A program made the position numbers and the translations under genes. From positions 26,265,141-26,329,140 of the forward strand of contig CM044965.1 of the NCBI GenBank assembly GCA_024516035.1: a DNA stretch of 64,000 nt, in the 5' to 3' direction. The notes beneath the pieces were generated by a model, which made no database searches, was not told the DNA's origin, and saw nothing but the letters and a program-made list of their open reading frames with translations. Source of the DNA: Bactericera cockerelli (lineage: Eukaryota > Arthropoda > Insecta > Hemiptera > Triozidae). Below are positions 26,401 through 54,174 of this stretch, in pieces; the stretch's first letter is position 1; each line of letters begins with the position of its first letter.

Positions 26401-29400
26401 TGACGGACACGGAATCAAGTTATGTAAATTTGTACACACGAAATTAGAGACGCACTTTTTTCAATCAGGATACTGTCAAACTCCAGAATTACTGCTCTGG
26501 TCCAAGCGAGGACTCAATTAAAACATAAAAGGTCATTATAAAAAATCGAACCGTCTACGCTCTACGCTCTTATTTTACAATTTTATGTTAATTAAATTCT
26601 AATTGCAAAAGTCACTCGCACATAGTTGTAAAGCTACTGGTTGGTCATCGCTGTAAATATCATAATCTTAGAGCTTAATGACTCAGTAATCATAAATACT
26701 TTGCAGCATAAATTAGAAGCAATATCATAACATAATTAAGCAATCTTCAGTGTCATTTATACAAGCAAGTATGTGTTTAAAATAGCTCTTACCGTTCTCG
26801 AGATATCGTGTTGACTGACACACGGACCCACGGCCGAAAACAACTTTTTTGATATCTCAAGTCAAACTAGTCAAAAAGGTCAAACAATACTTTTCTCATC
26901 ATAGGATAACGAAATATTTTCCTTATCCTATGATAAGAAGAGTAATAAAAAAGATGAGTATTTCACAGACCTCTTAATTTCGTGGCCAAGTATGGAGGAT
27001 TAAATCGCCGTCCTGACTAATTCAAATCAGGACGTACATCAGAAGTAGAATCAACTGGTCACAATAGATCTAAATAGCGGTCGGTGTTGTGATAATTGGT
27101 GCTTCTCTTGTGGAACTCCAACCAGTCTATAATAATAACACCCTGTTGCGTACAGCGTACACTGCGTACAGTAGCATTGCCTCCCCATAAACTCAGCCCT
27201 GACTTGGAAGAAGGGAGCCCTTGGCTTCAAACAAGTTAGTTGGTAATTTTCCATAATTTTGTAAGTTTCAACTCTCTATATCTGCCCTCAGCAGTTACCT
27301 TTTGACAATCCGAGAGATCACATCACACCTCAGTTCAAATTTAGTGTATACCATTTTCCACTTTTCGTGCAACGCTCAATAACCCCCCCCCCCCTCTTTC
27401 CCCCCACCAGTCCCTCAAGTGGCGGCAGGAGTGGGACATCGACGCCCTGCAGGACTGGGAGCCGCCCGCGGCGCTGGCGGGCCGCCTGGCGGTGGGCGTC
27501 ACCGGCACCGACAAGGAGGGCGCCCCCGTCCTGTGTGTGCCCTTCGCGGAGCTGGACTTTGTGGGCATGCTGCACGCCTCCACTAAGAATGATATCATCC
27601 GGCTGGTGGCTCAGACACTCGAAGGTATTATTTATTTATTTATTTATTTATGTATTTATTTATTTATTTATTTATTATTTTATTTATTTATATATTTATT
27701 TATTTATTTATTTATTTATATATATTTATTTATTTATGTATTTATTTATTTATTTATTTATTTATTTATGTATTTATTTATTTATTTATTTATCTATTTT
27801 TATTGGTTGACAAATACAATATTTGCACATAAACCAAAGTCAAAAGTAGGAAAAAGGTAAGTTACATAAAAGATATTATTTCTAGACAAATTATTATTTT
27901 TTTACTTTTTATGAGATATGTTTTGTTGTTGTTGTTGTAGCCAGCTTGGCTACAGCTGAAGGGGTGAGTGATGGTCTCCAGCCAACTTTATTTCAAAGTG
28001 GCTCGTCCTGAACCACATATTACTATGTGCGATCAACTGTCATGAGGACTTGGACTTTTCTTTATAAGCCATTAAACCCTTAGGAAACTGCAAGCTGGCC
28101 TGGCTTGTAAGGGTTGGCTAGTCTGTTATCTGTTTATTGTCCTCTAGCGAGACTACCTTATTAGATATAAATGGACATGATGTACAAAACAAATAATTAT
28201 TTTAACAATAAAAAAAATGGAAACAATATATACGATAAACATGAAAAAGAATAGAAAAATATATAGAAACATATGTCCTAACTAAAGGGCGGGGTTATTG
28301 CCTATGGCAATCTCTTCCACCCAACCCTTATGTATGTACAGTGTACACGATGGATTTTCTTTTTCGTGAACCACATGCCCTATTTTCATGAAATTTTAAC
28401 CGTGTTTTTCGTTGGGATCAATTCATTTTGGTTAACCAAACTGGAAGAAGATTTTCCCTCTTCCAAAAGAAAAATGACTTTCTTCAAGTTCGTCCATTTT
28501 ATTCCATTTGAATCCACTTTGTTTAGAAAGAAACCGGGACTTCAACCACCGACCTCCAGGTTATACAAGTCCGCCGCCTTATCGATCAAGCTACTGAGTT
28601 CGGATAATAATATAGATTAATCCAATAGCTGAGGTGCAATTTACACTGATGTGTGTTGATGTAATATTAAACCATAATTTCAAAATACATCCATTGCGGA
28701 GTTAATGATTTTTCGTCGTAACCGATTGTACCAAGAGAGCAATCAAATATTAATAGATATGACGAAAACTTCGGAGTAAATATTCAAGTGCATTTAACTG
28801 CAAGTCCATATTTAAATGCATTTTGTTGCACACAATCATAGCAAATAATAATACCGTCTCACTCATATTATTCATATTAATAATTTGTATAATGATACAT
28901 ATAATATTTAATAATAATCACCACGGAAATCTCAGTGGTTAAGCACTCGCTTGCCATGCGGAAGGTCCCGAGTTCGAACCCCCGCGCCAACTAAATTTGT
29001 ATTCAAAATTTTTGTCTATTGGGGGGCAAGATAGAGCAGGGCTATCGCCATATGTTGGGGTGTTAAAATCACGTAACGCGAAAAAACTTGGTCGCGACGC
29101 CTTGCTTCGGTAGCAATAAGAGCATAAATAACAATAAGGGCGGATGATTAAAAACACTGCAAGTTAAATTAGTAACAACTAAAGAGAGTAGAGTTTATTG
29201 ATGAAAGCACAATTAATTTACACGTGTAACTTAGTAAATATGAAATTATACAAGTTTTGAGTTATGAGTTATTAAAGTGGACTGTATGATTTAGATGATG
29301 AAAAGGTCTGAGCTATGCCAAGCAACAATTATCACCGAAGAAGTATCTTGGTGATTTAAACTGTATAGCACTTTAGGCAGTCAGAAACTCAAGTATCAAC

Positions 29401-32400: not shown

Positions 32401-35400
32401 GTGTTGGTAGATCAGTATCATAGACAATAGTCTGTCCCGGTAGCTCAGTGGTAAAGGCGGCACTCTGTGAAGCCAGAGGTCGTGGGTTCGAAACCCGGCA
32501 GGGACATGACAAGTTATCCTCCCATTTGGGATTTTTACCGCATAATAATAGGTCTTGGGCTTACTGCTGGATTAATGGGACTTAATAGTTCTAATCGGAC
32601 AGTATAAATAAGGCGATATTATTATTATATAGCCCGAGTTGAGAGACAGTCTGGCTTATCTTAACTTTAATCCTGTTTTATAATTCAGCCCTTGCCAGTG
32701 TCAATGGCGCTTTGAATGCACCGGTTCTCGTAGGATCACCGCAGTTAAGCAACGTCCAGCGAAGTGAAACCTTCGTGATGCTGGCATTCCAGCCCGACTC
32801 AGGCTGGGTGAGGTTAATGTGGGTAGCAGGTTTGTGAGTTTCCTGCGAATAGAGGGTAACACCCCCGTCGTGATATGACCGAGCAGTTGCAAGCGAGACG
32901 TTAAACCCAAATAAAAAAATAATTCTGCCCTCAGAGTTCGATGTCCATTTTGTTTTCTTGACGTTGCAAAACTAGGTAGGTATTTACAGTGTCGTCATTC
33001 TGGAGATGCTTCATCGTAAAAACCCGGTGATTCGACTTCCATATTTGGCCGCGTCATTTCACATTCTTTCCTGGTCCATTACTTAACATCACTGTGTTGA
33101 TACTGTTGATGTACTGTATTTCTACTGTCAATCTTTTTTCTTTAATATGAGTAAATGTACTTGTGACTTTGGGATATTTAAGACACCGGTAAATAAATAT
33201 ACCATCTATAAATAGTCTGGTTGGGGAACTATAAACAGGGAGTGGACCAGCTTTTTTTAAACAAAATTAAAGGACTTTTTCGGTGTCTTAAATATCCCAA
33301 TGCCGTATTTTCGCCACTGGTCGCTGCTTACATTGAAGCAGCTACTCATTTTTCCTCACGAGGTATAGTGGACCTCGAAAATCCAAGTACTGAGCAAAAA
33401 AAATCATGCCCCACCAGGCTGGGGTCGAACTGTCAAACCCATGCGTGCAATGCCTGGCGCGCTAACTGACTCTGCCACGGTGACTACTGTTTCACTGTTT
33501 CTGTTTATCCTTCTATTTCACTGTTTTATTTATTAAGAAACTCTTAATTAGTAGAACATATTATATACAGACAGATAATAGTAAAAATTATATATAAAAA
33601 TTGACAATATTAATAAATAAACAAGAAAGAAAATAAAAACAAAATATATACATATGTCCTAACTAAAGGGCGGGGTTATATGGTAATCTCTTTCACCCAA
33701 CCCCCCTTATTTATCCTCCTGTTTCATTGTTTTATCCTACTGTTTCACTGTTTTTATCCTCCTGTTTCACTGTTTTATCCTCCTATTTTACTGTTTTATC
33801 ATCCTATTTCACTGTTTTATCCTCCTATTTCACTGTATTATCCTCCTATTTCACTGTATCATCCTCCTATTGCACTGTATCATCCTCCTATTGCACTGTT
33901 TTATCCTCCTGTTTCACTATTTATCCTCCTATTTCACTGTTTTCTCCTCTTGTTTCACTGTTTTATCCTCCTGTTTCACTGTTTTATACTCCTGTTTCAC
34001 TGTTTTATCCTCCTGTTTCTCTGTTTTATCCTCCTGTTTCACTGTGTTATCCTCCTGTTTTATCCTCCTGTTTCACTATTTTATCCTCCTGTTTCACTGT
34101 TTCATCCTCCTCTTTCACTGTTTCATCATCCTCTTTCACTGTTTTATCCTCCTGTTTCACTGTTTGATCCTCCCATTTCACTGTTATATCCTCCTATTTC
34201 ACTGTTTTATCACCCTGTTTCACTGTTTTATCCTCCTGTTTCACTGTTTTATCATCCTGTTTCACTGTTTTATCCTCCTGTTTCACTGTTTTATCCTCCT
34301 GTTTCACTGTGTTATCCTCCTGTTTTATCCTCCTGTTTCACTGTTTTATCCTCCTGTTTCACTGTTTCATCCTCCTCTTTCACTGTTTCATCATCCTCTT
34401 TCACTGTTTTATCCTCCTGTTTCACTGTTTGATCCTCCCATTTCACTGTTATATCCTCCTATTTCACTGTTTTATCACCCTGTTTCACTGTTTTATCCTC
34501 CTGTTTCACTGTTTTATCATCCTGTTTCACTGTTTATCCTCCTATTTCACGATTTTATCCTCCTGTTTCACTGTTTCATCCTCCCGTTTCACTTTTTTAT
34601 CATCCTGTTTCACTGTTTTATCCTCCTATTTCACTATTTTATCATCCTATTTCACTGTTTCATCCTCCTGTTTCACTGTTTCATCTTTCTGTTTCACTGT
34701 TTTATCCTCCTGTTTATTTTTATTTATAAACATTTGGATCAAGCTTTATTTACATCTTTTATATACAATGAACATGGTAACAAGTTAGAAATAAATATAA
34801 ACAAAACCTGATCAAGGGTGGTGATAATGTCTTCGGCATTCAATTCTCTATTCCTGTTTCACTGTTTTATCCTCCTGTTTCACTGTTTTATCCTCCCATT
34901 TCACTTATTTCTCCTCTTGTTTCATTGTTTCATCCTCCTGTTTCGTTTCCCAGGTTTCATCGAGGAGGCTCTTCCACCCAACTCTTATTTATCCTCCTAT
35001 TTCACTGTTTCATCCTCCCGTTTCATTTCCCAGGTTTCATCGAGGAGGCTCGCCGCCAGGGAGAGGTTCACGGGCCGGCCGCCACGAAGCTGGTGGCCAT
35101 CTTCGACATGACAGACTTCAGCATGAAGCAGTACGCGTGGCGGCCCGCGGCCGAGCTCATCCTCTGCATGATCCAGATGTACGAGGCCAACTATCCGGAG
35201 ATACTGAAGAACTGCTACGTCATCAATGGTAAGATAAGTAAGATAAGAGAAGAGAAGAGAAGAGAAGAGAAGAGAAGAGAAGAGAAGGAAGAAAGAAGAG
35301 AAGAAGAGAAGAAAGAAGAGAAGAGAAGAGAAGAGAAGAGAAGAGAAGAGAAGAGAAGAGAAGAGAAGAAGAGAAGAGAAGAGAAGAGAAGAGAAGAGAA

Positions 35401-38400
35401 AGAAGAGAAGAAGAAAGAGAAGAGAAGAGAAGAGAAGAGAAGAGAAGAGAAGAGAAGAGAAGAGGAAGAGAAGAAGAGAAAGAGAAGAGAAGAGAAGAGA
35501 AGAGAAGAGAAGAGAAGAGAAGAGAAGAGAAGAGAAGAGAAGAGAAGAGAAGAGAAGAGAAGAGAAGAGAAGAGAAGAGAAGAGAAGAAGAAGAGAAGAG
35601 AAGAGAAGAGAAGAGAAGAGAAGAGAAGAGAAGAGAAGAGAAGAGAAGAGAAGAGAAGAGAAGAGAAGAGAAGAGAAGAGAAGAGAAGAGAAGAGAAGAA
35701 AGAAAGAGAAGAGAAGAGAAGAGAAGAGAAGAGAAGAGAAGAGAAGAGAAGAGAAGAGAAGAGAAGAGAAGAGAAGAGAAAGAGAAGAGAAGAGAAGAGA
35801 AGAGAAGAGAAGAGAAGAGAAGAGAAGAGAAGAGAAGAGAAGAGAGGGAAGAGAAGAGAAGAAGAGAGAAGAGAAGAGAAGAGAAGAGAAGAGAAGAGAA
35901 GAGAAGAGAAGAGAAGAGAAGAGAAAGAGAAGAGAAGAGAAGAAGTCAACTATCCGGAGATACTGAAGAATGCTACGTCATCAATGGTAATAATAATAAT
36001 AACTCTTTATTGACAAGAATAATATTGACAAAGGGCGTGTGATTATTGCCTGAGGCAATCTCTACCATCAAATCCATACGGTTACCAGTTATTTGATTTC
36101 GAGAAGTAAAGTGTTCTATCATATATTAAAAAAAGAGAGAGAAAAAAAAAAAAAAAATGTATAAATATAGGTATATACAGGGTGAGCATAAAGTCTCACC
36201 CCACCCCCGTATCTCGAGAATGGCTAAAAATACAAGAAAACGCAAAAACCCTTATTCCTTAATTTTTAGGGGGATTAATTTTCAGCCAAAAAAAAAATTG
36301 CCTACACGGCCCCAGTCAGGCTGGGCATGGACAAATTTTAAGATCTTAAATAGAATGGTATGTCTTGTGGCATATTGTTTTAAAGGTCTCATTGAGAGAA
36401 GTTCATTACAACAAATTTCAGTGAGCTACAACTTACTGTTCTTGAGATACAGGGTCGGACGCCCTGCGTAATATCCATATATTTTGACCTATAACTCGTT
36501 AACCGTAAATTATAGAAAAATGAAATTTTTTGATAATTACTCCTTATGACAAGCACTTTCTAAAAAATTATAACTCGACATACTCTGTTGATATTAGATT
36601 CTGGTCGGTTTCGTCAGCCACCCGGACGAAAAGTCCGAAAACATTTAACGAAAAAACAAATCCAGTTTTAACTTGTTCGAAAGTTCTTGCGATAAGGAGT
36701 TAATATCAACAAATTTTTCTGGAATTTACGGTAAACGAGTTATAGTTCAAAATATATGGATATTACGCAGGACGTCCGATCCTGTATCTCAAGAACGGTA
36801 AGTTGTAGCTCACTGAAATTTGTTGTAATGGAATTCTCTCTATGAGACCTTTAAAACAATATGACACAAGACATAACATTCTATTTAAGATTTTAAAATT
36901 GGTCCATGCCCAGCCTGACTGGGGCCGTGTAGGCATATTTTTTTTGTCTGAAAATTAATCCCCCTAAAAATTAAGGAATACGGGTTTTTGCGTTTTCTTA
37001 TATTTTCAGCCATTCTCGAGATACGGGGGGTGGGGTGAGACTTTATGCTCACCCTGTATAAAAGAGAGGATATAATATATTATATCCGGGTGAAGAAAAA
37101 GAAGAAGAGAAGAAGGAAGAAAAGAAAAGAAGGAGGAAGAAGGAAGAAGAAGAAAAGAAGGAAGAAGTAGGCCAATTACCCGGAGATACTGAAGAACTGC
37201 TACGTCATCAATGGTAAGTCAACTATCCAGAGATACTGAAGAACTGCTACGTCATCAATGGTAAGTCAACTATCGGGAGATACTGAAGAACTGCTACGTC
37301 ATCAATGGTAAGCCAACTATCCGGAGATACTGAAGAACTGCTACGTCATCAATGGTAAGCCAACTATCCGGAGATACTGAAGAACTGCTACGTCATCAAT
37401 GGTAAGTCAACTACCCGGAGATACTCAAGAACTGCTACGTCATCAATGATAAGTCAACTCTCCCGAGATACTGAAGAACTGTTACGTCATCAATGGTAAG
37501 CCAACTATCCGGAGATACTGAAGAACTGCCACGTCATCAATGGTAAGTCAACTACCCGGAGATACTGAAGAACTGCTACGTCATCAATGGTAAGTCAACT
37601 ACCCGGAGATACTGAAGAACTGCTACGTCATCAATGGTAAGTCAACTACCCGGAGATACTGAAGAACTGCTACGTCATCAATGGTAAGCCAACTACTCTC
37701 GCCAGCGAGACACTGGTCTTCTCCCTGTTCAAGTGGTTAAGAACTCGCTTGTCATGCGGAAGGTCCCGGGTTCGATCCCCGTGCTGACAAAAATTTGTAT
37801 TCTTAATTTGGTAACAATTGTTTGTAAGGGATACCTTCCGGTGCGCTCGTGTTGACCCAGCACCTAATTGGGAAGTATTGAGTCACTTCTCGCCCATCAG
37901 AGGGGAGGCATACTACGGGATGGGTAGTCTACAACACAGACATCAAGCGTCTACAGTAGCTCCTGTTTCAAGCGTCTACAGTAGCAAAAAAAAAAAAAAA
38001 AAAAAAAAAACCTCTCCCACCCAGACAAGACAAGGCCCTAAAATTAGGGAGTCAGCTGAAGGATTTTTGATGGGTTTCAAAATCTTGGCGTATATGTATG
38101 TGTGTTAATACCCATACATGACATTAACACACACACACATATACTCCAGGTTTTCCCATCGGTGGGACAAATAGTTTGGGCGAAATGGATCGGATGTCCA
38201 TTGAGCGTCCGACAGTGTCCCACGGGTACACACACTGTAAATAGAGAGTCGGTAGCGCAGGTATGTGTTAAAGGGAAAGGTCTTGTTATCCTGAAGATAA
38301 TTATTGACACAAAGAGACATTGAAAAAACAGGGGACCCAAGATCGAAGAACCACCTAACAGAGAGGATCAGTTTGAAAATCCAGAGGGGCAATACTGCCA

Positions 38401-41400
38401 GTGTGTTGTCAGCATTGCCTTCAGAAGAATTACAGTCACTGTTTTATTTTTATTTATATAAAAAAAAAAACACTGAAATACACGATTCACGTAAGGTATT
38501 TATTCAGGTAGAGTATTTCAGTCAAACTTGAACCAAACTGGTTTCAATATCATCGTGAGGTCAATGTTAAGGCCGAACTGGGTTATGTTCAGTGAACATG
38601 AAAAGATGTAAACATTGAACTTAGTACTTGTTTAATACTTGAAAAAAAAAATAACATTGAACTTGCTATTACCTATTTAGTACAAAAAAACATTAAATTC
38701 TATTTGTTCATTTCGTACAAAAAATAAACATTGATTTTTACGAGTTATTTATTTCCTATACGTTCTTGTTGATCAGCTTTGTGGTTCACTGGTTAGAACA
38801 ACTGGAACATAAATAAAACTTAAGGTGGTGTGATTTGAATTGATCATTGAAGAGGTCCACAAATATCGAAAAATATAGAAAATTTAAATACTTCGTGTTC
38901 CAAGTCTCAATTGTACCTACCTATTAACCTATGTATGCTAGGAAATAATAATAAAAATAAATGCAACAACTTACCTACATATATTACTTCCTTAGAATTT
39001 CTAATAGCTTAGTGGTCTGTCCCGGTAGATTAGTGGTATTGGTAAAGGCGGCACTCTGTGAATTCAGAGGTTATAGAGGTCGCGAGTTCGAAACCCAGCC
39101 GGGACATGACAAGTTATCCTCCCATTTGGGATTTTTACCACATAATAATACGTCTATGGTTTACTGCTGGAATAATGGGACTTAATAGTACTGATAAGAC
39201 GATATTATTATTATAATATTAAAAATCGGAAGTATTGTGTTCGTTGTTGTAAAGAATAATATTTTTGTGCTCCGATTTCAATTTTTTTTGACCGTTTCAT
39301 AACCTCCTGAGCAACTTTTCTCTCCCTCTCGTGTTTCAGCGCCCAAAGTGTTCACCCTGGCGTGGCGAGTGGTCAAGAAATTTCTGCATGAGTACACCAT
39401 CAGCAAGATCCACCTGTACCGATCTGACCCCTCCAAATGGAAACCTGTCCTTCTGGAGGTGATGGCGGAGGAGATGTGGCCTGCTAGCATGGGAGGTGCC
39501 GGCAGAGACCCCGACGGGAACCCTAGGTGTCTCACCAAGGTAATGATGGTGGAGGTGTTGTGTGGAGGTGTTGTGTGGAGGTGATGATGGTGGAGGTGAT
39601 GATAGTGGAGGTGATGAGAGTGTAAGCCTGTCCTTCTGGAGGTGATGGATGTGGAGATGTGGCCTGCTAGCATGGGAGGTGCCGGCAGAGATCCGGACGG
39701 GAACCCTAGGTGTCTCACCAAGATAATGATGGTGGAGGTGTTGTGTGGAGGTGATGATAGTGTAAGTCGGTCCTGCTGGAGGTGATGGATGTGGAGATGT
39801 GGCCTGCTAGCATGGGAGGTGCCGGCAGAGACCTGGACGGGAACCCTAGGTGTCTTACCAAGGTAATGATGCTGGAGGTGTTGTGTGGAGGTGATGTGTG
39901 GAGGTGATGTTAATGGAGGTTATTTGTGAAAAAATTTCGTGTTTGATGTTTTCGACTGCATAAAGTCAAGAACTCACTCGCTCTTGAGCGACCAATTTCG
40001 GTATTCAAATTTCACCTTTACTTACTTACTTTCCGTGTCCATGATGGTTGTGTCATGGTGGTGGAAGAATTGATGGGGTATAACCCCTGTGGACGCCCAG
40101 AAGCAATTTTCTGGGCTCCTTCCGTGTCCAGGTTTATTGTGTTGTTTTTATGTAAATAAATTGCACTGGTAAAAACATTTTTTTTTTTATAAACATTTGG
40201 ATCAAGCTTTATTTACATCTTTCATATACAATGAACATGGTAACAAGTTAGAAATAAATATAAACACAGCCTGATCAAGGGTGATGATAATGCCTTTGGC
40301 ATTCTCTTAAAATTTGGGACAATTAGGAGCATTCAGTTTTGTTGTTGTCTTCTTTAAAAACTGGCTAGTTATCTTTTATTTCACCCTTATTATGTGTGTC
40401 CCCCCAGATTCCCCAGATCGGCAAGGTCCCCAAGTCCATGTACCTGAAGAAGCCCATAGACAAGGCCCTGGAGGAGAACTACACCCAGGCGGTGGTCAAG
40501 AAGGGGGACAAACTCAGCCTGGACTTCAACGCCCCTGAGGAGGGGTACTTTCTTAAGTGAGTGATGAGTGAGGTGTATTTCCTTAAGTGAGTGAGGGGTA
40601 CTTCCTTAAGTGAGTGATGAGTGAGGTGTATTTCCTTAAGTGAGTGAGGGGTACTTCCTTAAGTGAGTGATGAGTGAGGGTACTTCCTTAAGTGAGTGAT
40701 GAGTGAGGGGTACCTCCTTAAGTGAGTGATGAGTGAGGGGTATTTCCTTAAGTGAGTGATGAGTGAGGGGTATTTCCTTAAGTGAGTGATGAGTGAGGGG
40801 TAGTTCCTTAAGTGAGTGATGAGTGAGGGGTACTTTCTTAAGTGAGTGATGAGTGAGGGGTATTTCCTTAAGTGAGTGATGAGTGAGGGTACCTCCTTAA
40901 GTGAGTGATGAGTGAGGGGTATTTCCTTAAGTGAGTGATGAGTGAGGGGTATTTCCTTAAGTGAGTGATGAGTGAGGGGTAGTTCCTTAAGTGAGTGATG
41001 AGTGAGGGGTATTTCCTTAAGTGAGTGATGAGTGAGGGGTATTTCCTTAAGTGAGTGATGAGTGAGGGGTACTTTCTTAAGTGAGTGATGAGTGAGGGGT
41101 ACTTTCTTAAGTGAGTGATGAGTGAGGGGTATTTCCTTAAGTGAGTGATGAGTGAGGGGTATTTCCTTAAGTGAGTGATGAGTGAGGGGTACTTTCTTAA
41201 GTGAGTGATGAGTATTTCCTTAAGTGAGTGATGAGTGAGGAGTAGTTCCTCAAGTGAGTGATGAGTGAGGGGTACTTCCTCAAGTGAGTGATGAGTGAGG
41301 GGTACTTCCTTAAGTGAGTGATGAGTGAGGGGTATTTCCTTAAGTAAGTGTTGAGTGAGGGGTACTTCCTTAAGTGAGTGATGAGTGAGGGGTATTTCCT

Positions 41401-43656: not shown

Positions 43657-46074
43657 TGATGGAAATGATGCAGTGTGAAAGAAAAGTCCCGGGACGGTTT
43701 TTCATCTTTTTAACGGTTTAAGATAGGGACTTGAAGTTTTTGTATGAAGTTCTAACGCAAAAATTTCCGTTTGTTGGCGGAACTGAAATTTCTACAGGGT
43801 GTTCCAAAATTAGTGAAACAGGCATGAACTTTCCATTTTTAAATAGGTCCTACTATTTTCTATTCAATATTCTTGTGGAACTCCAACCAGTCTATAATAA
43901 TAAAAACTTTAACATCCGATTTCTCAGTTTGACGTCAGTCACGTCAGTGTGGGTTGATTCCCTTTTGTATAACTACCTTCAATTTACCTATCTGTAAGGG
44001 AAAAAAGAGAAACCTGGATATAAGAGAAAAAAATTCCAATCCCTTGAGTTCACTTACATCCAGGTTCAACTATAATTGGAAATTTAACACTTGGCTTTTT
44101 GTTGCTATGTAATCTCGTACATATTTTTAAAGTAAAAATGTAGGTAAAACAAAAATTACTAATTACTCGTAATTTCAAATTAGTTCGATTTTGATTTTTT
44201 TATGGCTCTCTTTAAAGTGGCAGGGTTCCCACACGTGAGCTCTTCCACTCAACCACATATTTCTATTACTGTAAGTTTTTAAAAGTTACCTATACAATTT
44301 CGCATTATATTTATTTGCTCATGTACATACATATTTGATGCTCACTATAAACTTAAACATATTCTTAGCCAATAACGTCGATGGCATTTTGAACAGTGAA
44401 CATGAACAAGCCAGTTCTTGTTATGTCACTGCAGTTAAGCAACGTCCAGCGACGTTAGGACTTGCATGGATAAACATTCTACTCCCGGCCCCACTCAGGC
44501 TTGGTAAGGTTGAAATCGATAACCAATGTTAAAACGGCCATTGCAAAAAAAAAAAAATTATTTTGTATCGAATATCTTTCATATGCATGCCTTCTACTGT
44601 CGGGTTTTTTCTGTTGAAGACATGTATTTCTGGAGATTGATCTTGAATTTCTAATGCCTAATTATTCCTATTTAAAAACTTCTGATCCCTTCAGTTCTAT
44701 TGTGTCCAGATTTGATAGTACGTATTTCGTTCTATGAATTTATTTATGTAAAATTTCTAGGATGTACTCTTTCTATTTCTTAACATAATCTGTCTACCTA
44801 TATTCGTTAAAAATAAGTAGTAGTTTTTATGTTAATTTCTCATAATTGTCTGTATTTAAAATATCCATTTTTTAATATACTGAAACTTATTGTTTTATAT
44901 CATATAGATATACTTGTGTTCTTAATAAATTCTGGAGATATAGGTAGTAATATCACATTATTCATACTGCCCGATTACACTATTAAAGTCCCATTATTCC
45001 AGCAGTAAGCCCAAGACGTATTATTGTGTGGTAAAAATCCCAAATGGGAGAATAACTTGTCATGTCCCGGGCGGGTTTTAAACCAGCGACCTCTGGATTA
45101 CCAGAAAAATTCATGCATGGGGTGGTTTACAAAATGTCTGCCTTGACCCGGAGGAATAATTAATTGATTATTACATAAGGTGCGTGAATAGAATAATAGA
45201 GTTATTACATAGAATAATGGAGCGCGCGATTAGCTCAGTGGTTAAGCACTCGCTTGCCATGCGGAAGGTCCCGGGTTCGATCCCCCGTGCCGACAGAAAT
45301 TTGTATTCTTAATTTGGTTACAATTGTTTGTAAGGGATACCTTCCGGTGCGCTCGTGTTGACCCAGCACCTAAATGGGAAGTATTGTGTCACTTCTCACC
45401 CATCAGAGGGGAGGCATTCTACGGGATGGGCAGGCTGCAACACAGACCACAAGCGTCTACAGTAGCTCATGTTTCATGGTAACGAAATAAAAAAGGCTGT
45501 GAAACACTCATCCTAAAAATAAATAAAAAAATCTGAGAATTAGACTTTGCCGGGTCGAGATGCGGTTGCCAAGTCCCTGCTCATGTTGATACTATATTCA
45601 TGAGCACTTGAGCAGGGACCCTGGCAAGCGCATCTTGACCCGGCCTTAAATCATGAGCAATGTTACCCCTTCCTAGTCCTAACCTCTCTGGACGTTGCTT
45701 AATTTCAGTGACAGTAACAACTGGTGTATTCGACGTACCATTGACGGTGGCTAAATTCCATAATGAAACAATACTGACATAATACGCCTAGTAATTAATT
45801 TTGTCTGGTTATGCAATATGTTAATATGCTCCTGAAATACAAGTGATACTTTCCGCAGTACATTTGTCACGTTTCAAAACATTGTGCAATACCGCGAAAA
45901 TTTTAAATTTAAAAATTAGATAATTGTTAACACTCTCCATAAATTATCATAAATATCTTTTCAGAAATTTTATTAGATTTTTCCTGCGTATTTAAACTAT
46001 TTTCTTTAAATATACCATGATCATAAGGTTGATTAAATAGTTCATTTCATATAGATCTTTAGAAAAGTTTCAAA
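43657..46074. other. Intergenic region between the SEC14-like gene and SBDS
   Basis: Filled with repeats: 43675-43870 matches the element at 22968; 44380-44525 SINE D (+); 44945-45105 SINE A (-); 45225-45520 full SINE F (+); 45549-45644 an imperfect hairpin with arms GCCGGGTCGAGATGCG/CGCATCTTGACCCGGC; 45675-45752 a 5S-like SINE D head (-). 44530-44940 and 45755-46074 hold nothing I recognise. The SBDS promoter must lie here, but no motif stands out. Confidence 0.65.
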
Positions 46075-46205
46075 ATGTCGAAAATATTCACCCCGACCAA
46101 CCAAATCCGACTCACAAACGTAGCCATAGTCCGAATGAAGAAAGGAGGCAAAAGGTTTGAGATAGCGTGCTACAAAAACAAAGTTGTCTCCTGGAGAAAT
46201 AATGT
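46075..46205 (+). CDS. SBDS: SBDS exon 1
   Basis: Begins [19 protein letters not shown] and ends SWRNNV, with the valine split GT|T. The donor GTAAGT directly follows. One residue is inserted after Met-Ser compared with vertebrate SBDS. Confidence 0.95.
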
Positions 46206-49200
46206 GTAAGTTTTAGACTTAAATTTATCCAAAATAACTAAGTTATCATATTGTGTTAATCACTTTTGTGATATCACAACTACTCGAACTTGTGTTAGCA
46301 AGTCTATGCTGAACCCGGAACTTGATCCACCAACTCGGTTGTACCACTGGTGGTACAAATGTGTCTGCACGGAATGGACTGGTTGGGTTACGGTGGCCAA
46401 CAGAGATTTCAAGACTGCTTGCACCACAGGTGGTACACCATATCTGTATTTCATAAGACCAATTTACTATTCAAAGCAAAACAAATTTTAGGGGGAAAAA
46501 ATCTGGTCCTATGCAGTGACCTACCTCCAGAGTGCCAGTTCTAGGGGCTGAAATGCAAAAAAGTGTCGGTTGGATAGTGTTAACAGGGAGCAGACCAGTA
46601 GTCTGACCAAGTGGACTGTTAAAAGGTTGCAGACCAGAGCACAGTTCTGACTGGCTTTGCTAGCTAGTGGTTCTGAAAGGGTTCAAAATGTCCCGTTGAT
46701 TATTTGATCAGTGGTATAGGACAACGGAAAATCCTGGTGAGAAACCATCATCCTTGCTACAATAACAACTGTGAAATGGAGAATTTCAACAAAAATTGTG
46801 TGGTCCATAAGGAAATTCTGGTGAATCAACCTTGGGACAGTAAAGGTCAGATTATAAGTAGAGAAATAAATTTATGAAGTCAGACCCTCCCTCAAGCCAG
46901 ACTTCTATCAATTAAAAATGAAAAAAAATCCCATGCATTGATCCAATCAACAGATCCTAACGCAAGCTTGTTCACAAGTCCAGTGCCTTAATCACATTGA
47001 TTGACTACTTACAACAATGCCTTTCTACCAATGCTTGGTAGAAAGGTTTTTATTTGAATTCAAGTTTCATTCAATTTTTAGTGAGACATTCCATTTAGTT
47101 TATTTATTTTTATTCCAGTGAGAAAGACATAGATGAAGTGCTACAAACTCACACCGTATTCACCAACGTATCCAAAGGACAAGTTGCCAATAAGGAAGAT
47201 TTGAAGAAAGCTTTCAATTCTGAGGACCAGACAGAAATATGTAAACAGATTCTAATGAAAGGTAATATTTATAATGATAAAAAAACTAACCTCCATTTTG
47301 TCCTGGTAGCTACATGTCCCAGTAGATCAGTGGTAAAGGCAGCACTCTATGAATCCAGAGATTTCAGAGGTCTTGGGTTTGAAACCCAGCCAGCACATGA
47401 CAAGTTATCCTCCCATTTGGGATTTTTACCACATAATAGTATGTTTTGGGCTTACTGCTGGAATAATGGGACTTAAATAGTTCTAATCGGGCAGTATAAA
47501 TAAGGTGATATTATTATTATTATTATTAACCTCAGTTCCTTGATCAATAAGGCAGCAAACTTGTGACTCGTAATTTCAATTCTAATGTTCAGCAAAGATA
47601 CGAGGTCTGTCCCGAAAGTTCGTATAAAAATGAAATAAAAATTTTATATTACAATTAATCGGGTAATTCAATTTTGTCTCCTCCAAAGTACTCTCCCTGG
47701 GACACAATGCACTTCTGCCAACGCCGTTTCCACTGTTTGAAGGCTCCTTGAAAGTCCTCAGTTTGAAGTCTCTTCAGCTGACTCGTCGTTGCTGCTTTAA
47801 TGGCCTCAACGTCCCCCAAATGCCGCCCCCGAAGCACCAATTTTGTTTTTGGGAATAAAAAGAAGTCACAGGGTGCCAAATCCGGTGAATAAGGGAGGTG
47901 TTCAGTCGCTATGATCGAATTGGCAGCCAGAAACTCACGCACAACGAGAGAGGTGTGAGCGGGAGCATTGTCGTGGTGGAGGATCCACCGCCCCTCTCGC
48001 GCCAAATCCGGCCGATCTCGAGCCATCCGAGCTTTGAGGCGTCTGAGCACTTCGACGGAAAATCTCTAATTAACTGCCTGGCCTGGAGGGACAAATTCTT
48101 GATGGACAATGCCCTGAACATCGAAAAAAACGATCAACATTGTTTTTTTAACCACTTGTGGTTAAAAAGTGGTTGTGAAATCTTTTTAACCAATTGTGGA
48201 CTGTTGGTTCTTTGAAGGCATCATCTCCATAAACTACTTGGTTGAGATCATTAAAAAAATTTCGGCCATTGTTGCCGAGTTTCGCGAGAAATTTGATGAT
48301 GACGCGCTGTTCTTGAATGACTGAGAGTTCCATGCCGACGAGTGATAGAGAGAGGGGTCACTTCACAGGTACCGGGACGATCCAGTTTTTATCGTAAGGC
48401 GATCGAACGCACACTGAGAATTGTTTGGATGTTGTAGAAGGGGAAATAGCCCAAATTGCCTCCCCACTTTGCCTTCCAGCGTTGCCAGAACACTTTTATA
48501 CGAACTTTCGGGACAGACCTCGTATAGTAAAGAGGAGTTCAGTAATTGTTACTTTTAACTTTTTAAAACTAAAGAATAATAAGTAATATCTACAAACATG
48601 TGGATCTAGTCTGTTTACCCAACAAGTGAGCACTCAACTAGCATTTTATGACCATGAACATATTTATTGATATATTTTCTCACTTTTCTGTTTATACTGA
48701 TTAAAATGGAGAGGTTGGTTGATGACATGGATATTCAGAAGTATTACCTGCTGATGAGAGCAAATAAGCTCAAAACAGCTGTCCAGGTATGTTCTGATAT
48801 TCATGTACATCTAATAAAACTTCTCAGTTTTGTGTTTCTACTAATATACTGATTTTTATTGTGATATATAGATAAAAACCTTTTCTTTCTACCACAGGTG
48901 AGCTACAAATTTCGGACAAGGAACGGCACAACCAAATTGAGAACCAGCTCAAAGACATTGCCACAATTGTCTCGGACAAATGCATCAACACGGAAACCAA
49001 GCGCCCGTTCACTGTGTCCATGATAGAAGCAGGACTGAAGCAAATTCACTTCAGTGTTAATGTGAATAAGAATTCCAAGCAGCAGGCCCTGGAAGTAAGT
49101 ATCATAGCTTCCATGGTGAAACTTCAGTGTTAATGTGAATAAGAATTCCAAGGAACAGGCCCTGGAAGTAAGTTAAGTTTTTTTTAAGTTATCATATTTG

Positions 49201-52200
49201 TGTTAATCACTTTCGTGATATTACAACTACTCAAACTCGCTTTACTAAATCTACGCTGAAACCGGGACTTGAACCACCGACCTCCAGATTACAAGTCCGC
49301 CGTCTTTTCGATCAAGCTACTAAGGTCGGTACAGGCCTTGGAAGTAAGTATCAAAGCTTCCGTGGTGAACCACTGCTTGTGGTCCAGAGCAGGCGTGTAG
49401 CCAGGGAGTAGTTTCGGAAGAAAATCCACCCACCAAAATATCAAGGACTTCTATTGTTACAGACCTCACTTTAAATACAAAAATCAAGAAACCCCTAAAA
49501 AATTATGCAATCTTCAGAATAATATAGTACAATATCAATATAGTACATCCAACCCTATATCTCAAAAATTTCTACAAGCAATCAAGCAAGATGAGAAGTT
49601 GGACTTTTTTCATTATCAGCCATTAAACCCTTGTTAACAGACAACCCCTCATAGGTAGATCAGATTGATAGACACAGATTTGAGTTTTATGTTTAGATGT
49701 AACATATTACAAGTTTAAATGACATCTATTAGTTAAAAAGAAGATACTTGATCTTTTTATTTGATCCCACCCAGTGCATGAATTTTTCTTCATTAATTTG
49801 AGTTTGTGACCACATAATAATAAGACTCTGAGGGTTAGGTGGTAGAAAATGCTTTGAGCATTAACCTGGCCTGCTGGTTATCTTCCACTAAAGACTGTTA
49901 TTATTATTATCTACATGCAATAAAAAGTACAGGGGTCTTAATACGTAAAATATGGTTAATTCTTGAGAACTTTTACAGGGTAGCCTGGTGGTTGCCTTCC
50001 ACTAAAAAGTATTATTTATTTTGCTTTATTTTGTACTTATACTTTGAATTTGTAATCTTGTTATATGTTTATCTAGGGCTTGGCCCGTAAATATACACAA
50101 GGCCTCTTCACAATTTTTGTGGGTAGCACAGCATTACTAAGAGCCTCCTGTACTTTTCGAATTCAATTACATTAATTTCTTTTTACTCTGGTAATGCCGC
50201 CACTGGTCGTTACTCACACAAGTAACTACTCATTTTTCCTCACGAGGTATGAGTGGACCCCGAACATCCAAGCACAGAGCAGAAAAATTCCTGCCCCGCT
50301 GGGAATCGAACCCAGGTCACCATGCGTGCAATGCCTAGCGCGCTAACTCACTCTGCCACGGTGACTACTGTATTATTATTATTATCTTATCAAGTGAGGT
50401 GATTATCTGTGTTCCAGGTGATACCTCTCCTCAAGGCGGTGATGAGCGTGGAGCGAGCCCAGATGAGAGTGAAGGTGGAGGTGGCGAGTGGTGTGAAGGA
50501 GGTGAAGAAACTCAAGGAGAAGCTGGTCAAGTGTGCGATGAGTGTGGAGGAGGGACTGGAGTGGGGGAGGGTTGCTACTGGTGAGCTTTTTTTTTTATTT
50601 TATTTTTTTAACAAGAATTGTGCTTTATTTGTACATCATTTCATTACAATATTAGAATAACAATAACATGATAAATATATAAGTACCAGGTACCTACTTA
50701 AAATTAGTAAAATAAAATAATATGAGTATGCACTTATACTATCACACTAAGGTACCTGGAGAACTAGGCACCTTGATTTTAATTTAAACTCACAGTTCTC
50801 TGTCCCGGTAGTGATCAAGGTGTCACACCGGTAGTCCAGAGATCCTGGGTTCAAACCCAGCCAGGTCATGACAAGTTATCCTCCCATTTGCAGTTTCGAC
50901 TACATAATAATACGTCTTGAACAGCCTCCGTGGTGTGACGGTTGAGACTACTGTCCATAGTCCAACGATCCCGAGTTCGATCCCCGGTTGGGGCAAACTT
51001 TTTGAAGAAAATTCTGTTTCCTCCAAACATGTGAGACTGGCATTTCTGGCACTACCCAGGCTGGGTGAGGTCAATGTGGGTAGCTGGTACGATTCCCAGC
51101 GAATAGAGGGTAAAACCCCCGTCCTGACTATCTATCTCAATCAGGATAGTAAAACCAAATTTAATAGAATCAACTGGTCACAATAGATCTACTTAGATCG
51201 CAGTGTTTATTGTAAGGGTTTCACTGAAAACCCTGCAACCAGGTCAGATATTATTAATAATAATAATAATACAGGGTGGGGCAAAAGTCTGGAAACCCCT
51301 GAATAACTTTCGAATGGCTTCCTCGGTAAAATTAAAATTTTGTATGGTAAATCGGGCTAATAAGACCTTCCTTTAGAGTGGGGTCGATTTTTGTTACCGG
51401 CCCCCATGTCGGGGCCAGGGGGCCCAACTTCATTTTTTTAAATACGAACCCCCACCTTGCGATACATTTTTGAAGAGGGCTTTAAATAAGAAATACATTG
51501 GTGCAAATTTTATTTTTTAAATATTAACTGTTTGCAAATGGCGTCCAACTTTGTGTATGCAGAAAAGTCTGGAAACCCCTGAATATCTTTCGAAAGGACT
51601 TTCTCAGTAAATTTAAAATTGTGTACGGTAATTCTTGGTAATTAGACCTTTTATTAGAATGGGACCGATTTTTTTTACCGGCCCCCCATGTCGGGGCCAG
51701 GGAGGCCAACTTCATTTTTTTAAATACGAAACCCCACCTTGCGATACATTTTTGGAAAGGTCTAATTACTCCGACTTACCGTGCACAATTTTAAATTTAC
51801 TGAGAAAGCCCTTTCAAAAGATATTCAGGGGTTTCCAGACTTTACTGCATACACAAAGTTGGACGCCATTTGCAAACAGTTAATATTTAAAAAAATAAAA
51901 TTTGCACCAATGTATTTCTTATTTAAAGACCTTTCTAAAAATGTATCGCAAGGTGGGGGTTCGTATTTAAAAAAATGAAGTTGGCCCCCCTGGCCCCGAC
52001 ATGGGGGCCGGTAACAAAAATCGACCCCACTCTAAAAGAAGGTCTTATTAGCCCGGTTTACCTTACAAAATTTTAATTTTACCGAAGAAGCTATTCGCAA
52101 GTTATTCAGGGGTTTCCAGACTTTTGCCCCACCCTGTATATTAGTCTTGGGCTCACTGCTGAAATCATGGGACTTTTTAAGTCCTAGCCAGGTAGTATAA

Positions 52201-53011
52201 ATGAGACAGTATTGTTTATTGTATGTATGGTTTTACTTCACAATTTTTGTGGGTAGCGCAGCATTACTAAGAGGCTCATTCACTTTTCGAATTCTATTAC
52301 ATTATTTTTTTATTACTCAGGTAATGTCGCCACTGGTCGTTACTCATACAAGTAACTACTCATTTTTCACGAGGTATGAGTGGACCTCAAACATCAAAGT
52401 ATAGATCAGAAAAATTCCTGCTCCGCTGGGGATTTGAACCCTAGCGCACTAACTCACTCTGCCACGGTGACTAAAATATTATTATTATTATATTTGTGTT
52501 AATCATGATTGCTCTACTAATTTATTGCTTAACATAAATCTTTATATTAGAAGTCCACTGCCTTCTCTTATTATTATTTTTAAAATTCAAATCTATTTCA
52601 AAGCACCTGTAAAACTTGGATCTAGTTAACTAAATGGATCTTGGATCTAGTTCAAGTCTATGGTAGACGTAATTTCAGATAAGTTACAACGCACATGTGG
52701 TGATACCAGGGCCGGGGCATTCTTACGCCAACGACTGTCATTGGCAGTCCAGCGTGGAAATGCCTCGAGCCTGGTAGGCACCATGTGTCGGGAGAAGAAC
52801 GATGACATGTTTGTTGTATGAAGATACAGTTAAATAAATCAAGCTATTTGTTAACTAAATTAACTTCTCCTTTTTTTTTCAGGTGTGCCTCATAGACCCA
52901 GGCAAGTACCGGGAGATTGATGAGCTTGTGAGAAGCGAGACTCGAGGCCAGGGCACCCTTGAGTTGTTGAATCTGAAGGAGGTTACAGAGGGAGAGGAAA
53001 TACTGGAGTAA
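46075..53011 (+). CDS. SBDS: Ribosome maturation protein SBDS, 5 exons
   Basis: Exons 46075-46205, 47119-47261, 48898-49094, 50418-50580 and 52883-53011 encode about 253 residues, against 250 in human. Seen in order: [20 protein letters not shown] and [16 protein letters not shown] (N-terminal FYSH domain), [72 protein letters not shown] (central domain), and [16 protein letters not shown] with LELLNLKEV (C-terminal domain). Known role: with the GTPase EFL1 it releases eIF6 from late 60S ribosomal subunits in the cytoplasm. The ATG follows stops in its frame. Oddities: exon 4 is one base out of frame with exon 5, a broken mariner sits in intron 2, and the stop-codon region is a 13-copy tandem array. 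No promoter element was recognised in the 2.4 kb upstream, which is mostly SINEs. Confidence 0.95.
46243..46340 (-). repeat. SINE family C in SBDS intron 1
   Basis: Reverse copy cut in the head (GAACTTGATCCACCAACTCG). The rest of intron 1 (46341-47118) contains GTACCACTGGTGGTAC, a short palindrome, and nothing else recognised. Confidence 0.6.
47119..47261 (+). CDS. SBDS: SBDS exon 2
   Basis: After a TATTCCAG acceptor it reads [19 protein letters not shown] through EICKQILMK plus one base, then GTAATA. This is the second half of the FYSH domain, including the conserved THTVF.NVSKGQ segment. Confidence 0.95.
47316..47527 (+). repeat. SINE family A in SBDS intron 2
   Basis: GTCCCAGTAGATCAGTGGTA head, tail AAATAAGGTGATATT(ATT)n; older than most copies. 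Confidence 0.78.
47655..48050 (-). pseudogene. Mariner transposase C-terminal fragment
   Basis: 131 codons ending [18 protein letters not shown] and [13 protein letters not shown] carry catalytic Asp 2 and Asp 3. The ATG is an internal Met, not a real start; upstream in another frame VQGIVHQEF is still visible. Confidence 0.88.
48148..48333 (-). pseudogene. Mariner transposase N-terminal fragment
   Basis: 61 codons from MELSVIQEQ to a premature end. The N-terminal helix-turn-helix region is partly preserved ([12 protein letters not shown]). The frame is lost at the internal deletion. Confidence 0.8.
48630..48815 (+). repeat. Dispersed repeat M in SBDS intron 2
   Basis: Inverted counterpart of 11195-11345. 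It looks exon-like (open frame, then CAGGTATGTTC), but the second copy and the intact SBDS splicing phase without it argue against an exon. Confidence 0.6.
48898..49094 (+). CDS. SBDS: SBDS exon 3
   Basis: After CCACAG it reads [19 protein letters not shown] through [10 protein letters not shown], then GTAAGT. This is the central helical domain. Its last 45 or so bases with the donor are duplicated at 49122-49172, and a shorter third piece lies at 49331-49360. Confidence 0.95.
49110..49372. repeat. Two extra copies of the SBDS exon 3 tail and donor, split by SINE C
   Basis: 49122-49172 repeats TTCAGTGTTAATGTGAATAA to CTGGAAGTAAGT with a small change (GGAACAGG). 49186-49330 is a full reverse SINE C. 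49331-49372 repeats ACAGGCC.TGGAAGTAAGTA and the following intron bases TCAAAGCTTCCGTGGTGAA. The SINE therefore inserted into an existing tandem array. Confidence 0.85.
49760..50370. repeat. SINE B (+) and SINE G (-) in SBDS intron 3
   Basis: 49765-49910 is a B body and tail without the head. 50195-50370 is a reverse G copy with GGGAATCGAACCCAGGTCAC and CTCACTCTGCCACGGTGACT. Confidence 0.75.
50418..50580 (+). CDS. SBDS: SBDS exon 4, with a one-base frame conflict
   Basis: After TTCCAG it reads [19 protein letters not shown] through [20 protein letters not shown]. The canonical donor GTGAGC at 50581 leaves 163 nt (exit phase 1), but exon 5 needs phase 0. Human SBDS has this intron at phase 0, immediately before VCLIDPG. 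Dropping one G from the G-run at 50561-50570 restores the phase and gives 18 residues between KLKEKL and VCLID, as in human. The alternative is the weak donor AGG|GTTGCT at 50571, which is in phase but three residues shorter. Confidence 0.85.
50793..52215 (+). repeat. SINE A interrupted by SINE E and a foldback element
   Basis: 50793-50925 is the 5' part of a SINE A (TGTCCCGGTAG to ATAATACGTCTTG). 50926-51140 is a full SINE E. 51271-52140 is a foldback MITE. 52142-52215 resumes the SINE A tail (AGTCTTGGGCTCACTGCTGA to CAGTATT). The nesting order can be read: A oldest. Confidence 0.75.
51271..52140. mobile_element. Foldback MITE, second family (about 870 bp)
   Basis: ACAGGGTGGGGCAAAAGTCT at the left is mirrored by AGACTTTTGCCCCACCCTGT at the right. 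Arms of about 400 bp meet with almost no spacer near 51705. Each arm also contains an internal copy of its own subterminal sequence (AAAGTCTGGAAACCCCTGAA at 51563). Non-coding. Confidence 0.85.
52235..52475 (-). repeat. SINE family G in SBDS intron 4
   Basis: CTTCACAATTTTTGTGGGTA at the start, TCACGAGGTATGAGTGGACC in the body, CTCACTCTGCCACGGTGACT at the head end. The T-arm is damaged (GGGGATTTGAACCCTAG). Confidence 0.78.
52883..53011 (+). CDS. SBDS: SBDS exon 5 (terminal)
   Basis: After a long T-tract and CAG it reads [19 protein letters not shown] through [17 protein letters not shown], with TAA at 53009-53011. The last 55 coding bases plus the first 3' UTR bases are the founder copy of the 74-bp array that follows. 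Confidence 0.95.
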
Positions 53012-53940
53012 ATACAAGTTAGAAGGGTACCCTTGAGTTGTTGAATCTGAAGGAGGTTACAGAAGGAGAGGAAATACTGGAGTAAATACAAGTTAGAAGG
53101 GTACCCTTGAGTTGTTGAATCTGAAGGAGGTTACAGAGGGAGAGGAAATACTGGAGTAAATACAAGTTAGAAGGGTACCCTTGAGTTGTTGAATCTGAAG
53201 GAGGTTACAGAAGGAGAGGAAATACTGGAGTAAATACAAGTTAGAAGGGTACCCTTGAGTTGTTGAATCTGAAGGAGGTTACAGAGGGAGAGGAAATACT
53301 GGAGTAAATACAAGTTAGAAGGGTACCCTTGAGTTGTTGAATCTGAAGGAGGTTACAGAAGGAGAGGAAATACTGGAGTAAATACAAGTTAGAAGGGTAC
53401 CCTTGAGTTGTTGAATCTGAAGGAGGTTACAGAGGGAGAGGAAATACTGGAGTAAATACAAGTTAGAAGGGTACCCTTGAGTTGTTGAATCTGAAGGAGG
53501 TTACAGAGGGAGAGGAAATACTGGAGTAAATACAAGTTAGAAGGGTACCCTTGAGTTGTTGAATCTGAAGGAGGTTACAGAGGGAGAGGAAATACTGGAG
53601 TAAATACAAGTTAGAAGGGTACCCTTGAGTTGTTGAATCTGAAGGAGGTTACAGAAGGAGAGGAAATACTGGAGTAAATACAAGCTAGAAGGGTACCCTT
53701 GAGTTGTTGAATCTGAAGGAGGTTACAGAAGGAGAGGAAATACTGGAGTAAATACAAGCTAGAAGGGCACCCTTGAGTTGTTGAATCTGAAGGAGGTTAC
53801 AGAAGGAGAGGAAATACTGGAGTAAATACAAGTTAGAAGGGTACCCTTGAGTTGTTGAATCTGAAGGAGGTTACAGAAGGAGAGGAAATACTGGAGTAAA
53901 TACAAGTTACAAGGGTACCCTTGAGTTGTTGAATCTGAAG
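52956..53940 (+). repeat. SBDS: 74-bp array around the SBDS stop codon, 13 copies
   Basis: GAGTTGTTGAATCTGAAGGA starts at 52961, 53035, 53109 and so on to 53923, an exact 74-bp period. The first copy is the real exon end. Copies differ mainly at ACAGAGGGAG versus ACAGAAGGAG; this alternates in the first six copies, runs as GGG in 7-9 and AGG in 10-13. The 3' UTR therefore probably contains 12 relics of its own coding end. Confidence 0.95.
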
Positions 53941-54174
53941 GATATTGACCTCTGTAGCTTGATTTTTGAGGAGTGAAAAGAAGGTCTAGTTATAAAGATC
54001 TCCCATTTGTGGGAGATTTTTAACTTGAAAAAAGAATACCCTTATGTCTACTATTGTATCATACAGAAAAAAATATTTGTTTATTCTTCTCATTCTTTGG
54101 TTTAAAAGCAAAATAATGAAAATAATAATAATTCTCTTGTAAAAAGGGTGTCATAATTATTATTTATTTTTTAA

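What the first reader, a model, noticed from the sequence alone, without database searches (positions are those of the whole stretch)
35186..53940. Tandem arrays founded on exon ends and 5' splice sites in two neighbouring genes
Seen: downstream of exons d, e, f and g of the SEC14-like gene and exon 3 of SBDS, the repeated unit is the last 14-95 exon bases plus the working 5' splice site. The SBDS terminal exon does the same with its stop codon. That is 6 of 12 visible coding-exon 3' ends. Each array starts with the true exon and extends only downstream. Units differ (23, 30, 47, 74, about 100 bp), so this is not one satellite family but one process acting repeatedly at the same kind of place. 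Inference: either a mutational mechanism tied to splice donors (for example R-loop or U1-associated breaks followed by slippage), or selection for redundant or decoy donors. I know of no described system with this pattern.
Basis: partly seen in the sequence, partly recalled or inferred. Interest (0 to 1): 0.88.

Follow-up and report, generated by a model that had tools for sequence, protein, structure and literature searches.

The report
Tandem arrays seeded on exon edges
In this psyllid (jumping plant louse) genome, short stretches that straddle the edge of an exon are copied over and over in tandem, like the "mirages" reported from amphioxus, and exon ends seem to seed such arrays more often than neighbouring DNA does.

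Summary
The arrays are real. In the window, 5 of 11 called 5' splice sites and 1 of 2 called stop codons (SBDS) found a tandem array. "Only donors, only downstream" is wrong: the 3' splice site of exon d is arrayed upstream, 2 copies in the window and 15 in a second copy of the locus about 75 kb away. That copy carries mostly the same units at the same exon ends in very different numbers. The genome is a psyllid. "No described system" is also wrong: amphioxus "mirages" have this anatomy (PMC3087553, passages). The link to donors survives tests outside the window: the most over-represented hexamers in array units are GGTGAG and GTGAGT; donor hexamers occur in 20 of 68 arrays against 6.1 expected, in gene-sense orientation 16:3; genome-wide, tandem AGGTAAGT triplets exceed the reversed-motif control 12-fold, 7.7-fold after correcting for single motifs. 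Against it: by plain occupancy donors (5 of 33) equal intron positions (16%). Best reading: mirage-type minisatellites tolerated by splicing, with a founding bias at 5' splice sites whose cause is unknown.

The parts
33710..34944 (+). Acceptor-side array of 21-bp pyrimidine-rich units upstream of exon d, resembling its own pyrimidine tract
   Evidence: TRF rows 33710-34715 (period 21, 47.7 copies) and 34852-34944 (4.4 copies); resemblance to the tract by eye
34904..35051 (+). 80-bp duplication (1.9 copies) holding the 3' splice site and 18 bases of exon d; the last copy is the true acceptor (exon starts 35034)
   Evidence: TRF; probe hits at 34944 and 35024, 15 in the second copy
35188..35233 (+). 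Founding unit of the donor d array: last 41 exon bases plus the 5' splice site (exon end 35228)
   Evidence: Sequence; unit from TRF
35240..35943 (+). AAGAG microsatellite (140.8 copies) between donor d and its array
   Evidence: TRF
37173..37695 (+). Donor d array, 47 bp x 11.1; one further stray copy near 35946-35990
   Evidence: TRF; 13 probe hits, 35215 to 37670
39436..39923 (+). Exon e end (39539) and two further copies of exon end plus donor, spaced 183 and 140 bp
40536..41989 (+). Donor f array, 30 bp x 49.3 (exon end 40556)
   Evidence: TRF
42478..42961 (+). Donor g array, 23 bp x 20.9 (exon end 42487)
   Evidence: TRF
49045..49371 (+). SBDS exon 3 end (49094): three copies of exon end plus donor; only one in the second copy of the locus
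52950..53942 (+). SBDS terminal-exon array, 74 bp x 13.4, each unit with the stop codon (true stop ends 53011)
   Evidence: TRF

Best explanation
These are mirage-type minisatellites. Short stretches (roughly 20-180 bp) are duplicated in tandem in many places of this array-rich psyllid genome and then grow and shrink. Shown here: duplications straddling an exon edge occur at donors and at acceptors, unit lengths vary, copy number differs strongly between two copies of one locus, and exon interiors are nearly free of them. Inferred: they persist because splicing keeps using the outermost original site (first donor, last acceptor), so the extra copies fall inside the intron. Shown statistically, within the limits given: array founding is biased to functional 5' splice sites, about 3-fold over random places in the same loci and about 8-fold by genome-wide motif clusters (matches, not arrays). 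Inferred and least certain: the bias is mutational, for example a co-transcriptional lesion or replication conflict at the exon-intron edge, rather than selection for extra donors.
For: Arrays at exon edges in the window and in kinase loci picked without looking at arrays (e.g. L052, L064, L072, L074). Acceptor arrays. Same units, different copy numbers in the second copy. Exon interiors rarely duplicated: 1.8% of 565 positions. Donor words: GGTGAG 10 arrays vs 1.91 expected, GTGAGT 9 vs 1.99; 20 of 68 arrays vs 6.06, 0 of 2000 placements as high; GC-matched expectation 5.2; sense 16, antisense 3 (P 0.004). Genome-wide triplets 3170 vs 257 and 6667 vs 677; singles 39833 vs 25022. First-copy position test: donors 6-7 of 33 vs 2.3-3.0. 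Anatomy as in amphioxus mirages, where regular splicing is reported (passages).
Against: By occupancy donors (5 of 33) do not exceed downstream intron (16.2%). The centred first-copy test gives P of only 0.01-0.06. GTAAGT and GGTAAG are weaker than the GTG forms (5 vs 1.71, 4 vs 1.66). Acceptors are not clearly enriched (P 0.03-0.18, 0.07-0.26; TTTCAG 1 vs 3.5). Twenty chaperonin donors showed only 2-3 short donor duplications, by eye. Splice sites were called from sequence, not RNA. Nothing here tests the cause of the bias or which donor is used.
Confidence: 0.68

Rival explanations
1. No donor link: the genome is simply full of young tandem arrays, and those at exon edges catch the eye because exon interiors are kept clean by selection.
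For: Occupancy of donors (5 of 33) and acceptors (4 of 31) is about that of intron (16.2% and 10.0%), exon interior 1.8%; TRF arrays cover 7.1% of the 98 sampled loci.
Against: Collapsing arrays to founders, donor words are about 3-fold over random same-locus placement, sense-biased, and triplets are 7.7-fold over a reversed-motif control after normalising.
Confidence: 0.2
2. Selection keeps extra donors, as spare or decoy sites or as U1 snRNP landing pads that protect the transcript.
For: Donor-bearing arrays are mostly gene-sense; donor words top the ranking.
Against: Copy number is unconstrained between the two copies of the locus (3 vs 1, 13 vs 6, 46 vs 68); units carry 11-41 or more exon bases with no role in U1 binding; a stop codon and acceptors are arrayed too.
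Confidence: 0.07
3. The DNA word itself (CAGGTGAGT-like) is prone to slippage, whether or not it works as a donor.
For: The words are the most over-represented in array units.
Against: Orientation is 16 sense to 3 antisense; the bare word should have no orientation. Not all 16 were checked to be exon ends.
Confidence: 0.04
4. Assembly artefact: the arrays are mis-assembled.
For: Near-identical same-chromosome gene pairs hint that both haplotypes may be in the assembly; reads were not available.
Against: A second copy of the locus, exons 96-99% alike, shares the units at the same places with diverged repeats; similar arrays sit in unrelated loci.
Confidence: 0.03

Closest known systems
Amphioxus 'mirages': minisatellite-like tandem duplications of exon-intron boundaries (globin genes BflGb6 and BflGb9, Adh3; PMC3087553; also PGBD5 and troponin C, PMC3902484)
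   Same: Units spanning a splice site with part of the exon; 5' and 3' boundaries both affected; units of very different length; copy number differing between haplotypes there and between two copies of the locus here; mechanism unclear
   Different: A psyllid rather than a cephalochordate; arrays up to dozens of copies; a stop-codon array; here a statistical excess of donors over neighbouring sequence. Regular splicing and somatic instability, reported there, could not be tested here
Intron gain by tandem duplication across an AGGT site (listing and abstract start of PMC4974935; model in PMC3087553)
   Same: Tandem duplication that copies a splice-site sequence
   Different: No new intron is shown here; the duplicates lie in an existing intron or after a stop codon
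Ordinary intronic minisatellites
   Same: Tandem units of tens of bases with unstable copy number
   Different: The founding unit includes coding sequence and a working splice site

Membership tests
Amphioxus-type mirages | Tandem repeat unit spans an exon-intron boundary | tested here: met
Amphioxus-type mirages | Both 5' and 3' exon boundaries can be duplicated | tested here: met
   Donors d, e, f, g, S3; acceptor d; acceptor arrays in L064, L071, L079
Amphioxus-type mirages | Unit length varies from gene to gene | tested here: met
   23, 30, 47, 74, 80 and 140-183 bp in the window
Amphioxus-type mirages | Copy number differs between haplotypes | tested here: inconclusive
   Differs strongly between two copies of the locus, but whether these are haplotypes or duplicates is not settled
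Amphioxus-type mirages | Splicing of the mRNA stays regular | not testable with these tools
   No RNA data
Amphioxus-type mirages | Somatic length instability (reported for Adh3) | not testable with these tools
   No reads
Amphioxus-type mirages | Concerted evolution of units within a cluster | not tested
   No tree of units was built
Intron gain by tandem duplication | A new intron bounded by the duplicated splice sites | not tested
   Gene models follow relatives' proteins; no gained intron was looked for

The most novel reading that the evidence does not exclude
In this psyllid lineage working 5' splice sites are hotspots at which minisatellites are born: transcription or spliceosome assembly at the exon-intron edge provokes local tandem duplication, so that perhaps hundreds of introns carry arrays of duplicated donors, a standing supply of raw material for new introns and exons.
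Probability: 0.4. Interest if true: 0.85.

Novelty: new variant of a known kind. Interest (0 to 1): 0.62.

Why it matters
In the papers seen here, mirages were noticed gene by gene in amphioxus. A second, distant animal shows the same anatomy in unrelated genes, with a measurable excess at 5' splice sites. That makes it testable whether splice donors provoke tandem duplication, and bears on the origin of introns by tandem duplication. It also warns annotators: runs of perfect donors beside real exons can mislead gene finders.

Tried and rejected
Rejected: 'donor-only' and 'downstream-only' (acceptor d). Rejected as the sole account: random placement and base composition (GC-matched placement; reversed-motif controls). 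A lead dropped: that the genome might itself be amphioxus; its protein relatives are psyllids.

Led nowhere: naming the species (COX1 search, unanswered, not repeated); papers on psyllid tandem repeats and on further boundary-spanning arrays (nothing relevant listed); reading the original Adh3 paper (not held); microhomology at array junctions (by eye only, inconclusive, not used).

Rows dropped before counts. Of the 40, 7 gave no donor (L048, L050, L055, L066, L067, L068 had none that I would call; L056 was dropped as the near twin of L057), leaving 33; 9 gave no acceptor (L042, L047-L050, L056, L067, L068, L076), leaving 31. Splice sites were chosen with a position matrix recalled from memory plus reading by eye; the acceptor of L054 was placed by eye alone. 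The donor of L059, counted as duplicated, was not checked by eye. The centred 24-mer test misses L045 and L069, whose arrays are displaced from the exon; they were not added. 81 arrays became 68 after removing those that share unit sequence. Of the 16 sense arrays, several (such as L060, L066 and one of L064) were not shown to be exon ends. The top hexamer would not pass a correction for all words (P 3e-5 times about 2080), but donor words were the hypothesis given.

Full report
Setting. The window is G000:C11:26265141-26329140 of a 565-Mb assembly in 1032 contigs. The best named relatives of the SEC14-like protein are psyllids, Diaphorina citri (86% identity) and Cacopsylla melanoneura (83%); an unnamed relative is 93% identical. 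The genome is therefore taken as a psyllid; no call named the species. Pfam confirms the two genes: CRAL_TRIO in exon d, SBDS_N and SBDS_domain_II in the joined SBDS exons 1-3.

Observation. SEC14-like exons d-h join in an open frame and all exons were placed with a relative's protein. SBDS exons 1-3 join in frame; exons 4 and 5 of the window copy do not. TRF and probe counts show arrays at donors d, e, f and g, at the donor of SBDS exon 3 and at the SBDS stop codon: 6 of 13 called coding-exon 3' ends.

A second copy of the locus. The CRAL-TRIO matches pointed to a copy about 75 kb downstream. The 30 kb fetched is colinear with the window; long aligned blocks are 75-97% identical, exons 96-99%, and 8 of 114 fourfold sites and 1 of 272 residues differ over exons d-h. 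It may be the other haplotype placed beside the first (many kinase matches also come in near-identical same-chromosome pairs) or a segmental duplication; this is not settled. Copies per exon end, window vs second copy: donor d 13 vs 16, e 3 vs 8, f 46 vs 68, SBDS exon 3 3 vs 1, stop 13 vs 6, acceptor d 2 vs 15. For donor g TRF gives 20.9 vs 7.9. The other ends probed were single in both. So lengths are unstable, places are mostly shared, and one array exists in one copy only.

Genome sample by position. Forty kinase exon loci were taken in rank order without looking at arrays. Boundary arrays appeared: for example L052 (50 bp x 11), L072 (75 bp x 8.7), L074 (42-45 bp x 13), L064 (donor 30 bp x 5.7, acceptor 26 bp x 7), and acceptor-type arrays in L071 and L079. 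CRAL-TRIO loci show more (L008, 43 bp x 15.8). By occupancy, donors (5 of 33) and acceptors (4 of 31) are in arrays about as often as nearby intron positions (16.2% of 1664 downstream, 10.0% of 1544 upstream); exon interiors rarely (1.8% of 565). Occupancy counts an array once per copy, so I also asked how often a first copy has further copies. Centred test: donors 5 of 33 against 5.1-6.6% (P 0.01-0.06), acceptors 2-3 of 31 against 2.9-3.3% (P 0.07-0.26). With three window placements per site: donors 6, 7 and 6 of 33 against 3.0, 2.3 and 2.7 expected (P 0.007, 9e-5, 0.001), acceptors 5, 5 and 3 of 31 against 2.0, 2.3 and 1.6 (P 0.03, 0.05, 0.18), exon interiors 1.2-1.3%. Twenty chaperonin donors showed 2-3 short donor duplications by eye, none with a long exon part.

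Motif tests. Over 98 loci, window and second copy left out, there are 68 distinct arrays. Ranking hexamers by over-representation in their units against non-array sequence of the same loci puts GGTGAG first (10 vs 1.91, P 3e-5) and GTGAGT second (9 vs 1.99, P 2e-4), with CCAGGT, GAGGTA, AGGTGA and AGGTAA in the top ten or so; GTAAGT (5 vs 1.71, P 0.03) and GGTAAG (4 vs 1.66, P 0.09) are weaker. Reversed controls are low (GAGTGG 2, TGAGTG 4, AATGGA 1, TGAATG 0). Acceptor words are mixed: CCCAGG 6 vs 1.53 and CCCCAG 5 vs 1.28, but TTTCAG 1 vs 3.53 and TTGCAG none. Donor hexamers occur in 20 of 68 arrays against 5.2 (non-array placement, 0 of 2000; GC-matched 5.2, 0 of 1000) or 6.1 when first units are put back into the background (0 of 2000). 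Without the CRAL-TRIO loci it is 18 of 60 against 5.7 (0 of 2000), with one array per locus 10 of 40 against 3.6 (3 of 2000), for arrays of at least three copies 9 of 19 against 2.5 (0 of 2000). In loci oriented by their gene, 16 donor-bearing arrays are sense and 3 antisense (P 0.004, by locus 13 vs 2, P 0.007). This points to functional splice sites rather than the bare word, though not every one of the 16 was shown to be an exon end.

Whole genome. Three AGGTAAGT with gaps of 20-50 bases: 3170 matches against 257 for the reversed motif; AGGTGAGT: 6667 against 677. Single AGGTAAGT: 39833 against 25022, so 8.0% against 1.03%, a 7.7-fold excess. For AGGTGAGT the genome-wide single count did not complete; in 321.5 kb of array-masked local sequence it is not commoner than its reverse (12 vs 24; AGGTAAGT 25 vs 22). 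These are matches, not arrays: the places listed fall in 6 clusters and 5 clusters, all at the start of C1. Taken at face value this means some hundreds of arrays genome-wide, duplicate loci included; that is a rough extrapolation. The matching acceptor count did not complete.

Mechanism. A tandem duplication across a donor leaves the exon body joined to the first copy and the intron joined to the last; splicing from the first donor removes the rest. Acceptor arrays are the mirror image. That explains why donor arrays seem to 'extend downstream' and how they can persist (inferred; no RNA here). The bias to donors is shown only statistically; a co-transcriptional cause is my inference. Selection for spare donors fits poorly with free copy number and with the stop-codon and acceptor arrays.

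Comparison. PMC3087553 (passages from the abstract, section 16 and references) describes 'mirages' in amphioxus globin genes: minisatellite-like duplications of exon-intron boundaries, both 5' and 3', 6 vs 3 units in two haplotypes, splicing not disturbed by RT-PCR, mechanism unclear, and a model of intron gain; it cites Adh3 and further loci. PMC3902484 (one passage) adds PGBD5 and cites troponin C. In the eight answered literature searches no listed title or abstract start reported such arrays from insects or a genome-scale donor excess; the library holds openly licensed papers only.

Noticed in passing
50418-50580 (SBDS exon 4) and L041: Exon 4 of SBDS is 2 bases shorter in the window than in the second copy, and the window's exons 4 and 5 do not read on in frame. 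The window copy may be defective, or the consensus wrong.
   Followed up: partly
C11:26365141-26395140 (L039-L041): A second, colinear copy of the SEC14-like/SBDS region lies about 75 kb downstream; many kinase genes also come in near-identical same-chromosome pairs, so the assembly may hold both haplotypes.
   Followed up: partly
36175-37065: A stretch with long inverted repeats, apparently a non-autonomous DNA transposon, sits between donor d and its array; seen by eye.
   Followed up: no
42960-43200: Downstream of the donor g array the sequence looks like a 5S-rRNA-derived SINE (recalled resemblance) that may have cut into the array.
   Followed up: no
56371-57400: A gag-like open frame (by eye); colinearity with the second copy skips from about 54.8 to 61.3 kb of the window, so an insertion is likely.
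   Followed up: no
27628-27799: A TTAT microsatellite begins beside the donor of exon c; it is not built from exon sequence.
   Followed up: no
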